Under the pieces are notes generated by a model. The model had not been told where the DNA came from, ran no database searches, and saw only the letters and a list, made by a program, of their open reading frames with translations. This document shows, piece after piece, positions 26,451 to 28,352 of a stretch of 40,326 bases of DNA. The stretch lies in contig JAKAUI010000048.1 in NCBI GenBank assembly GCA_021827745.1, forward strand, positions 1 through 40,326, written 5' to 3'. The stretch is from Bacillota bacterium. Lineage in GTDB: Bacteria; Bacillota; Sulfobacillia; JAJZYS01; JAJZLH01. A program made the position numbers and the translations under genes. The stretch's first letter is position 1. Each line of letters starts with the position of its first letter.

Positions 26451-26533
26451 AGGCCGACAGTTCGCCAGCCCTGCGCCGCGGGCCTGTGCCGCTGGCCGCC
26501 CAGGCTGGGCGCGCCTAGCCCGGTGGGCAGAGT

Positions 26534-26887
26534 CTAGGGTGTGATCTCCAGCACGATGCCGACTGCGGCAACCACATCCTGCAGTTGTTCGTCGCTGACG
26601 ACGCCGCACTTCTCGACGAAGCGCTGCACGGAGACCGACCGCACCTGGAATGCGTCAGCAGCGGAGGCTTTGGCCAGACCGTTGCCTCGATCGGGGTCGA
26701 TTTGAACCATCCAGGGCACGGTTCGAAAGGAGTCCCGCCACTCGGTCAGCGGCACCACAACACGCAACCTGAGCTTCCCCACATGATCGCTGCTGACAAT
26801 CAGGCAGGGCCTGGCCTTTTGGATTTCGTCGCCCTCGGTCGGGTTGAGTCGGACCCGCCAAATCTCGCCTCTAAGCACCCGGCTCAT
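26534..26887 (-). CDS. MazF/PemK-type endoribonuclease toxin
   Basis: The 117-residue protein belongs to the MazF/PemK family: RGEIWRVRLNPTEGDEIQKARPCLIVSSD is the N-terminal beta-barrel, and LRLRVVVPLTEWRD and KASAADAFQVRSVSVQRFVEK contain the usual conserved positions. Family toxins cut mRNA at short sequences. No classical MazE-type antitoxin precedes it. The gene directly upstream, only 3 bases away, encodes a helix-turn-helix protein with an ImmA/IrrE metallopeptidase domain. Together they may form a toxin-antitoxin unit in which the XRE-ImmA protein is antitoxin and repressor. The start ATG 26887 depends on weak AGAGG and probably on coupling to the upstream stop. Confidence 0.88.
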   Translation of the reverse strand: MSRVLRGEIWRVRLNPTEGDEIQKARPCLIVSSDHVGKLRLRVVVPLTEWRDSFRTVPWMVQIDPDRGNGLAKASAADAFQVRSVSVQRFVEKCGVVSDEQLQDVVAAVGIVLEITP

Positions 26888-26890
26888 CCT

Positions 26891-28000
26891 CTAGTCTAGC
26901 TCGTCGCCAGAGAACTCCACCAAGTCCGGACTGCCCGCATAGATCGACGCCATGTGAGCTGCCGCTCGCATCAGATCGCTGGCCGTGGGCCACTGTGCGG
27001 CTCTTGGCGCCGCGTCCTGCAGCAGTCTGGCCGCCTCGCTTGGCGCGATGCGTCCCTCCGCCAGTGCTTGGTGGACGACCATGAACAGCCTTGTCGGTTG
27101 CTCGGGCCGCACCTCGCCAGGCTCGTCTTTCCGCCAGCCCCAGCTGCTCATCTGCCGGAACAGAGACGTGTAGACCTCTCGGTCAATGATCCCAAGATCG
27201 AAGGCGCGCCGAATCCACGCCTGCATGCTGACCCCGTATCTCGCCTTGAGCAGTCGCAACTCCTCGAAGCTGAGTCTGGAGCGCCGGGCTCCGAGTTCGG
27301 CCTTCGCGGCCGCCGCGGGGATGAGAAATGCCGCCGCAAACCGGCTCGCCGCCGCTTCTGCATCGATTCGGTGGACCTGCATTCTCAGATGGCCAAGCTC
27401 ATGAGCCAGATCAAATCGTTGGCGGTCACCGGCGCGCTCCGAGCTGAAGGCGATGACGGGGACCGATCCATTGACCCAACAGGCGTAGCCATCGAACGTA
27501 GCCCCGGCATCGAGTGGGATCACCTTCACTCCAGCATTTTCTAGCTGCCCGCAGAGATCCTCGATTGGACCTGTCCCAAGGTGCCACTGCTCGCGCAGCA
27601 AAGCTGCAGCATCCTCCGCCTCATCGAGCGACCCGACATCCACCTGCGTCAGGTCGCACTCGGCCACTGCTGGCCCGTACTCCTCTGCGATCAGGTGACG
27701 TTCGACGACTTCCTTGATCGAGGCTTCGATCGATCGCTGAGTATGACTTCCCAGAGTGCTGTGCTTACGGTAGGCGGCCTGCAACGTCTCGACCTGCACC
27801 TCGCGAAAGAAGAACTCCGTGCCAACCGACAGCGACCTCGCCAGGGCGAGAAGTGTGCTCTGGCGTGGGCTCGTCACGCCGCGCTCGAACTTGGAAATCG
27901 CCGTGGCCGAGACGCCGACGCGCCCGGCCAGGTCCCTTAGGGACATGTGTGCCCTGGCCCGTGCCAGCCTGATGCGCGGCCCCACATCCACCGTCCTCAC
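26891..28000 (-). CDS. XRE-family HTH regulator with ImmA/IrrE metallopeptidase domain
   Basis: The 369-residue protein joins an N-terminal XRE helix-turn-helix (about residues 8-62, LRDLAGRVGVSATAISKFER) to an ImmA/IrrE (COG2856) zinc peptidase domain with HELGH at 200-204 and a helical C-terminus. Known relatives control mobile elements or stress genes, sometimes by cleaving a partner repressor, and COG2856-XRE proteins also occur as antitoxin-like partners. It is followed after 3 bases by a MazF-type toxin gene. Its promoter carries two inverted repeats, which suggests autoregulation. The start is among three GTGs (28000, 27991, 27985). If transcription begins about 28004, the mRNA is almost leaderless with the first one. 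Confidence 0.88.
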   Translation of the reverse strand: MRTVDVGPRIRLARARAHMSLRDLAGRVGVSATAISKFERGVTSPRQSTLLALARSLSVGTEFFFREVQVETLQAAYRKHSTLGSHTQRSIEASIKEVVERHLIAEEYGPAVAECDLTQVDVGSLDEAEDAAALLREQWHLGTGPIEDLCGQLENAGVKVIPLDAGATFDGYACWVNGSVPVIAFSSERAGDRQRFDLAHELGHLRMQVHRIDAEAAASRFAAAFLIPAAAAKAELGARRSRLSFEELRLLKARYGVSMQAWIRRAFDLGIIDREVYTSLFRQMSSWGWRKDEPGEVRPEQPTRLFMVVHQALAEGRIAPSEAARLLQDAAPRAAQWPTASDLMRAAAHMASIYAGSPDLVEFSGDELD

Positions 28001-28003
28001 CTC

Positions 28004-28040
28004 GGTTTACAGTCTAACCGTCTCGTTACATTTCGTAAAC
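28004..28040 (-). promoter_or_regulatory. Promoter of the HTH-ImmA/mazF operon with two operator-like inverted repeats
   Basis: On the minus strand TTTACG (28034-28039) and TAGACT (28011-28016) are 17 bases apart. The predicted transcription start is about 28004, next to the first GTG of the gene. Two imperfect 16-base inverted repeats cover the boxes: 28025-28040 (GTTAC...GTAAAC, overlapping -35) and 28004-28019 (GGTT...AACC, overlapping -10). They are likely operators for the encoded XRE protein. From 28041 to the tRNA region I see only the hairpin described separately. Confidence 0.55.
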
Positions 28041-28216
28041 TCTCTTCTGGGGCTGCACCCTGCGATCTCGAGATATCGACCGGAGTCAATCGTCGCCATC
28101 CGGTTCGGTGTGCCTTGCGACCACCTGAGCACACGTGGGAGGCCCCTTGGTGCCATGGCTGAAGCTCTGGGCGCGGCACTGAGTCGCCGCGCAGTGGCCT
28201 TGGAGGCAAGAACAAG

Positions 28217-28261
28217 GGGGCTGTTCCAAGAGTGGCCAGCGGCCGCTTCTGGGACAGCCCC
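28217..28261 (-). terminator. Probable intrinsic terminator after tRNA-Glu
   Basis: Downstream of the tRNA on the minus strand, GGGGCTGT and ACAGCCCC pair as 8 bp. The stem continues after one mismatch with CCA/TGG, and an internal AGCGGCCGCT palindrome lies in the loop. CTTGTTCTTG follows, which is only moderately U-rich. It lies 15 bases after the encoded CCA. Confidence 0.5.
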
Positions 28262-28276
28262 GTGCTTAAGGTGCGC

Positions 28277-28352
28277 TGGTGACCCCACCGGGATTCGAAC
28301 CCGGGTCTTCACCGTGAAAGGGTGACGTCCTAGGCCTCTAGACGATGGGGTC
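28277..28352 (-). tRNA. trnE: tRNA-Glu (anticodon UUC) with encoded CCA
   Basis: The minus strand folds as a complete 76-base tRNA. The acceptor stem GACCCCA pairs with TGGGGTC, the anticodon stem TCACC pairs with GGTGA around the loop CTTTCAC (anticodon TTC), and the T arm contains GGGTTCGAATCCC. Discriminator A and an encoded CCA follow (28277-28280). Its 5' end is 10 bases after the stop codon of the core-MetE gene. Confidence 0.97.

What the first reader, a model, noticed from the sequence alone, without database searches (positions are those of the whole stretch)
26534..28000. XRE-ImmA/IrrE protease regulator paired with a MazF toxin
A MazF-type RNase normally has a small MazE-type antitoxin. 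Here the only partner is a 369-residue HTH-metallopeptidase, 3 bases upstream. This suggests a toxin-antitoxin module in which the regulator may neutralise or proteolytically control the toxin, or a stress switch. The location in front of tilS-ftsH could also connect it to expression of that core run.
Basis: partly seen in the sequence, partly recalled or inferred. Interest (0 to 1): 0.6.

Follow-up and report, generated by a model that had tools for sequence, protein, structure and literature searches.

The report
MazF toxin with HTH-protease antitoxin
A bacterial RNA-cutting toxin (MazF) is encoded directly behind a combined DNA-binding repressor and protease that probably serves as its antidote, a two-gene pair that recurs in unrelated bacteria and looks like a new version of a known family of cell-suicide and phage-defence switches.

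Summary
Window 26891-28000(-) encodes an XRE-ImmA/IrrE (M78) fusion and 26534-26887(-) a MazF/PemK RNase, 3 bp apart. The regulator is an RmrA-type protein, the antitoxin half of RosmerTA systems. The pairing recurs: at least 12 distinct loci (window included) in several Bacillota families, Ca. Aegiribacteria and Planctomycetota, with no separate small antitoxin at the seven intact ones. RmrA relatives otherwise mostly precede PIN toxins; MazFs otherwise have small antitoxins, as does the other MazF of this genome. MazF-paired RmrAs carry a 41-65-residue acidic C-terminal tail (10 of 10); PIN-paired ones end after 3-23 residues (27 of 27). That tail resembles the C-terminus of a small antitoxin of a related MazF. 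The genes share a 36-bp inverted-repeat promoter/operator with the PIN versions. Congeners lack the module at the same tRNA-Glu/tilS site, so it is an insertion and the tilS-ftsH link is unsupported. Best reading: a type II toxin-antitoxin module of the RosmerTA kind with a MazF effector, neutralised by the tail, repressed by the HTH, switched by the protease. Toxicity, neutralisation and cleavage are inferred, not tested. New variant of a known kind.

The parts
26891..28000 (-). rmrA-like antitoxin/repressor gene: XRE HTH (aa 7-66), ImmA/IrrE M78 zincin domain with HELGH (aa 200-204) and E215, C-terminal tail
26891..27019 (-). acidic C-terminal tail (from about aa 328), found in MazF-paired members; linker, helix 340-356, disordered end
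26534..26887 (-). mazF/pemK-like endoribonuclease toxin gene
28005..28040 (-). 36-bp inverted repeat GTTTACGA-N20-CTGTAAAC, probable operator over a weak -35 (TTTACG) / -10 (TAGACT, spacing 17) promoter
26492..28267 (.). stretch absent from the same site in two congeners: the inserted module with its promoter
28217..28261 (.). 45-bp imperfect palindrome at the tRNA-Glu end of the insertion; terminator or mobile-element relic
28277..28352 (-). tRNA-Glu (ttc), whose 3' side borders the insertion

Best explanation
A type II toxin-antitoxin module of the RosmerTA kind in which the toxin is a MazF RNase. One mRNA makes the RmrA-like antitoxin first and MazF second. The XRE domain binds the 36-bp inverted repeat over the promoter and represses the operon. 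The acidic C-terminal tail binds and blocks MazF, taking the place of MazE. The ImmA/IrrE domain is the sensor and switch: on a signal (by family precedent single-stranded DNA, zinc/redox or infection) it cleaves the repressor part or frees the toxin, so MazF cuts RNA and stops growth, as stress response or abortive infection. Shown by sequence: architecture, recurrent pairing, operator, intact catalytic motifs, tail that goes with the toxin type, insertion. Inferred: toxicity, neutralisation by the tail, cleavage, signal, defence role.
For: Family assignment: RmrA 5.5e-58 in PADLOC; CapP Z 12.0 over 160 residues and PprI-ssDNA Z 10.9 over 154. Pairing: at least 12 loci; in 398 genomes of the phylum the 4 MazF matches above 180 bits are all behind RmrA, the next best scores 79. 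Co-inheritance: RmrA and MazF distances correlate, r 0.754, Mantel p 2e-4, 8 pairs. Operator: 18 of 33 upstream regions, spacing N20 or N21 between 8-bp arms, none in 200 shuffles of each. Tail: 41-65 aa in 10 of 10 MazF-paired, 3-23 aa in 27 of 27 PIN-paired rows. Tail profile: best non-RmrA match among 7655 ORF stretches is the small antitoxin of a related plasmid MazF (E 0.1); 0 of 200 column shuffles reach its score for that protein. Catalytic H200, E201, H204 invariant in 19 rows. XRE-ImmA antitoxins antagonise toxins experimentally (PMC10440598, PMC12795458).
Against: No experiment. The RmrA-MazF read-through model showed no rise in tail confidence, so no sign of docking. The tail-antitoxin likeness is short and weak by E-value. 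Tail and toxin type change together only about twice on the tree, so they are few independent events. Two RmrAs with the MazF-type tail have no MazF next door (L006, L010). In the Kita RosmerTA the toxin was not fully neutralised by its antitoxin (PMC10440598).
Confidence: 0.7

Rival explanations
1. Neutralisation is mainly proteolytic or chaperone-assisted: the M78 domain degrades MazF, or presents it to ClpXP, and the tail is only a tether.
For: Catalytic motif kept in nearly all members; RipB antitoxin action depends on ClpX (PMC12795458).
Against: In L060/G091 the protease motif is HQLAH, yet mazF is intact and the tail is kept; the ImmA-type proteases with a known target cut HTH repressors (passages of PMC2701414 and PMC10440598).
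Confidence: 0.15
2. Control is only transcriptional: the regulator represses the operon and the protease inactivates the repressor; MazF is never bound and is toxic only when derepressed.
For: Conserved operator; ImmR/ImmA and DdrO/IrrE precedents.
Against: The toxin-type-specific tail is unexplained, and the operator is shared by PIN and MazF versions; leaky MazF would be costly without a binder (inference).
Confidence: 0.1
3. A decaying or domesticated module: MazF is weak or inactive here and the locus has little function.
For: mazF is broken in several relatives: G018 internal deletion, G050 and G464 stops, L043 truncation; congeners live without it.
Against: Both window ORFs are intact and the window MazF has every column that is invariant in the nine-row MazF alignment.
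Confidence: 0.1
4. A chance neighbourhood of two unrelated genes.
For: MazF belongs to a common Pfam family.
Against: Recurrence, correlated distances and the score gap.
Confidence: 0.01

Closest known systems
RosmerTA (RmrA/RmrT), including Gordonia phage Kita RmrTA and pneumococcal RipAB
   Same: Antitoxin is an XRE-ImmA fusion in an operon with its toxin; the window protein hits all 14 RmrA models listed by PADLOC
   Different: Toxin is a MazF RNase, not the membrane-acting Kita toxin or RipA; longer acidic C-tail
Xre-COG2856 systems with PIN or RelE toxins (Makarova et al. 2009, PMC2701414; NetFlax node D25, PMC10440598)
   Same: Fused HTH-protease next to an RNase toxin; same operator and architecture as the PIN-paired relatives found here
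   Different: MazF is not among the COG2856 partners in the passages read (RelE, PIN); different C-terminal tail
MazEF / PemIK
   Same: MazF family match PF02452; nearest solved relatives by sequence are M. tuberculosis MazF9
   Different: No small MazE; a 369-aa regulator instead
ICEBs1 ImmR/ImmA, Deinococcus DdrO/IrrE, CBASS CapH/CapP
   Same: XRE domain and M78 protease of the same families
   Different: There repressor and protease are separate proteins (recalled, and for ImmR/ImmA); here fused and paired with a toxin

Membership tests
RosmerTA | RmrA antitoxin: XRE plus ImmA domains | tested here: met
   PADLOC RmrA E 5.5e-58 over residues 9-328; Pfam HTH_3 and Peptidase_M78
RosmerTA | Partner is a recognised RmrT toxin | tested here: inconclusive
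   MazF hits no PADLOC model at E 0.1; which RmrT models that library holds was not checked
RosmerTA | Toxicity relieved by RmrA; anti-phage activity | not testable with these tools
   needs expression and infection assays
MazEF (type II) | MazF/PemK endoribonuclease | tested here: met
   PF02452 84.4 bits; invariant R26 and T48 (their catalytic role is recalled)
MazEF (type II) | Small MazE-type antitoxin gene beside mazF | tested here: not met
   none at the window or the intact relatives; the other MazF of the genome has one, PF11455 103.7 bits
ImmA/IrrE M78 peptidases | HExxH and third ligand Glu, zincin fold | tested here: met
   HELGH 200-204 and E215; CapP and PprI structure matches; the ligand role of E215 is recalled
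ImmA/IrrE M78 peptidases | Site-specific cleavage of an HTH repressor on a signal | not testable with these tools
   needs a protein assay
Autoregulated TA operon | Operator overlapping the promoter of the antitoxin-toxin operon | tested here: met
   36-bp inverted repeat, 18 of 33 strict matches, 0 in shuffles; binding itself not tested

The most novel reading that the evidence does not exclude
RmrA proteins are a modular chassis: a constant sensor-repressor (XRE plus ImmA) with an exchangeable C-terminal neutralising tail matched to the toxin. The MazF-type tail was grafted from the small antitoxins of the same MazF subfamily, so the ImmA domain can release MazF by cutting the protein in two, a self-cleaving antitoxin that turns a DNA-damage or phage signal directly into RNA cutting.
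Probability: 0.35. Interest if true: 0.75.

Novelty: new variant of a known kind. Interest (0 to 1): 0.5.

Why it matters
It extends RosmerTA-type systems to the best-studied RNase toxin, whose structures and neutralisation are known in detail. This makes the open question of how XRE-ImmA antitoxins block and release their toxins directly testable, with PIN- and MazF-paired members that share one operator and differ in the tail. The pairing was not named in what I saw of the papers found by the full-text searches (open-licence papers only; NetFlax Dataset S1 and Millman 2022 not seen).

Tried and rejected
Link to tilS-ftsH: rejected, because G001 and G002 have the same order without the module and blastn blocks stop at 26491 and resume at 28268 or later. 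Polar effects remain possible, and no terminator-like site was found on the - strand between 26300 and 28400.

Small hidden antitoxin: rejected for protein ORFs at the window; an RNA antitoxin was not sought.

Phage or plasmid origin: the 26 viral MazF loci have no RmrA directly upstream (0 of 26; two have a weak repressor-like hit on the other strand). Of 22 viral RmrA-like loci, 11 are full-length and have PIN-like genes next (11 of 11 by eye). The two plasmid RmrA neighbourhoods read carry PIN/DUF3368. The viral scan with the MazF-type profile found nothing.

Complex prediction: RmrA-MazF read through in frame was folded as a stand-in for a complex and gave no docking signal; the MazF part itself was partly low (424-451 under 50), so this is inconclusive.

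Single origin of the MazF pairing: not decided, two label changes on the tree with weak deep branches. MazF tree: the RmrA-linked MazFs split from 12 viral ones at 97/98; the genome's other MazF is a long branch of unsure place. No Foldseek PDB match passed E 0.001; the structure links rest on the second look and the profile search.

Rows dropped: near-duplicates and partial genes (L011, L012, L043, L051, L056, L057, L063, L069 and loci seen twice) were left out of the tail table; L006 and L010 were in the tail table but too short for the tree. PIN labels were given by eye, with Pfam on three examples; L007 and L052 have broken PIN frames.

Full report
What is there. On the minus strand, a 369-aa ORF (26891-28000, GTG start; GTG 27991 is a possible alternative by my reading) is followed after 3 bp, in the same frame, by a 117-aa ORF (26534-26887). 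The first holds HTH_3 and Peptidase_M78 domains, the second a PemK/MazF domain at 84.4 bits against a cut-off of 23.1. PADLOC matches the first to RmrA models (best 5.5e-58), with CapP and CapH lower down. NCBIfam gives the spr1629 repressor/antitoxin model, below its cut-off (117.8 of 335 bits). An AlphaFold2 model of the regulator is confident to about residue 327. Residues 120-294 superpose on CapP (Z 12.0, 160 residues, 3.2 A) and on Deinococcus PprI with ssDNA (Z 10.9, 154 residues, 3.2 A), and about residues 3-68 on P22 c2, ImmR and DdrO DNA-binding domains. H200, E201 and H204 are invariant in 19 rows.

Recurrence. The search of 398 genomes of the phylum found RmrA-like genes in 44 (48 places). 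Of the 30 places fetched, 4 have MazF next (window included), 23 a PIN-like gene, 3 neither (PIN by eye, Pfam on three examples). In the class, 30 of 154 genomes match; of 30 loci fetched, 6 have MazF or a broken mazF next. The scan of named genome contigs returned 11 loci, 8 of them with MazF or a broken mazF downstream (L034, L035, L036, L037, L040, L041, L043, L044), in Bacillota, Ca. Aegiribacteria and a Planctomycetota MAG. After merging loci seen twice I count 12 distinct RmrA-MazF loci. Seven have both ORFs intact (window, L034, L036, L037, L047, L040, L041). In the others mazF has an internal deletion (G018), an internal stop (G050, G464) or a truncation (L043), or rmrA has a TGA (G091). 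A decayed thirteenth (L186) keeps a tail-like end and a broken mazF.

Specificity of the link. In 45 genomes, 43 of them chosen for carrying RmrA-like genes, Pfam finds 94 MazF matches, 9 of them directly behind RmrA. With the RmrA-linked MazF profile on 398 genomes, four matches score 182-190 bits, all behind RmrA, and the next is at 79. The profile was built from nine RmrA-linked MazFs, these four included, so their high scores are partly by construction; the gap is what counts. Of 29 loci fetched from that search, 23 have a small ORF (68-133 aa) just upstream, 4 RmrA, 1 the decayed case, 1 nothing. The window genome's own second MazF overlaps an 85-aa MazE-like gene (PF11455, 103.7 bits). 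The six plasmid relatives of the window MazF that I read, of 1156 records, each have a small gene (74-127 aa) upstream. RmrA and MazF distances over 8 pairs correlate (r 0.754, Mantel p 2e-4).

The tail. After residue 328 the ten MazF-paired rows continue for 41-65 residues, acidic at the end; the 27 PIN-paired rows stop after 3-23. Seven rows with other or unknown partners plus a phage row run 11-49, and two of them (L006, L010) carry the MazF-type tail without a MazF, so the tail is not an absolute mark. On a tree built without the tail the MazF label needs two changes, one origin not ruled out, so tail and toxin are few independent events. A profile of 13 tails, run on 7655 ORF stretches, hits first the RmrAs, then the 96-aa DUF2281 antitoxin of a Nostoc plasmid MazF (E 0.1), whose end reads NPELTEFSVLDTEDWELEHD against NPELTAFIDVDLEDFNEKDQ in L010. 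Among 30 upstream proteins the best score belongs to L186 and the next to this antitoxin; 0 of 200 column-shuffled profiles gave that protein its score, though 1 of 200 gave some protein more than 10.0 bits. This is suggestive, not proof. The structure model shows a low-confidence linker (330-337), a helix (340-355) and a low-confidence end; folding with MazF attached did not raise its confidence.

Control. Upstream of 18 of 33 RmrA genes lies GTTTAC or GTTGAC, then N24 or N25, then GTAAAC or GTCAAC, with almost fixed spacing. None arose in 200 shuffles of each region. The arms cover the -35 and -10 of a promoter (direct reading); the promoter scan itself lists no site at the window because the two hexamers are weak. 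The window has GTTTACGA-N20-CTGTAAAC at 28005-28040. The operator is shared by PIN and MazF versions; 3 of 9 MazF-paired rows meet the strict pattern, others have variants by eye or are cut by a contig end.

Setting. In two congeners the run metE-like gene, tRNA-Glu, tilS, ftsH is intact without the module; similarity to the window stops at 26491 and resumes at 28268. The 1.8-kb insertion has 63.5% G+C against 67.5% for the window. It starts beside the tRNA 3' end with a 45-bp palindrome that has no second exact copy in the genome. There is no sign of a functional tie to tilS-ftsH.

Known background. Makarova et al. 2009 (PMC2701414; passages read) list COG2856-HTH fusions with RelE and PIN toxins. 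Ernits et al. 2023 (PMC10440598; passages read) place ImmA antitoxins (D25) as a hub of RosmerTA systems, mention PIN partners, and test a Gordonia phage system that defends against phages; the window RmrA matches other Gordonia phage proteins at about 30%. Maziero et al. 2025 (PMC12795458; passages read) show that RipB (spr1629), an XRE-ImmA protein, antagonises the toxin RipA. Full-text searches showed no paper that names an XRE-ImmA/MazF pair in what I saw; only open-licence papers are covered and supplementary data sets were not seen.

Mechanism. Repression by the XRE domain, neutralisation by the tail and release by the ImmA protease is the reading that uses every conserved part. Steps shown by sequence are the architecture, pairing, operator and intact motifs; toxicity, binding, cleavage, signal and purpose are inferred. 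L060/G091 is a hint that the tail matters most: a stop separates the HTH from the rest and the protease motif is HQLAH, yet mazF is intact and the tail is present.

Noticed in passing
window 28217-28261: 45-bp imperfect palindrome beside tRNA-Glu inside the insertion, GGGGCTGT-type ends; no other exact copy in the genome and none in two congeners.
   Followed up: partly
L197 (G001:C2, about 239076-239288): A congener holds a MazF C-terminal remnant of the same subfamily next to nucleotidyltransferase/HEPN-like genes and without RmrA.
   Followed up: no
L006/L038 (G042:C78): RmrA with a MazF-type tail followed by a Pol-beta nucleotidyltransferase and a HEPN-like gene instead of MazF: possible toxin swap.
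   Followed up: no
L005/L035/L085 (G018:C245): mazF with an in-frame internal deletion between two similar RLSP stretches; the near relative L036 is intact.
   Followed up: partly
L060/L116/L183 (G091:C69): TGA splits the HTH from the protease part; protease motif HQLAH; mazF intact.
   Followed up: no
L146-L156: Eleven viral contigs carry RmrA with a PIN-like gene (by eye), a likely prophage-borne defence or TA cassette.
   Followed up: partly
L002 1205-1785 (G000:C50): Canonical MazE-like/MazF pair in the same genome.
   Followed up: yes
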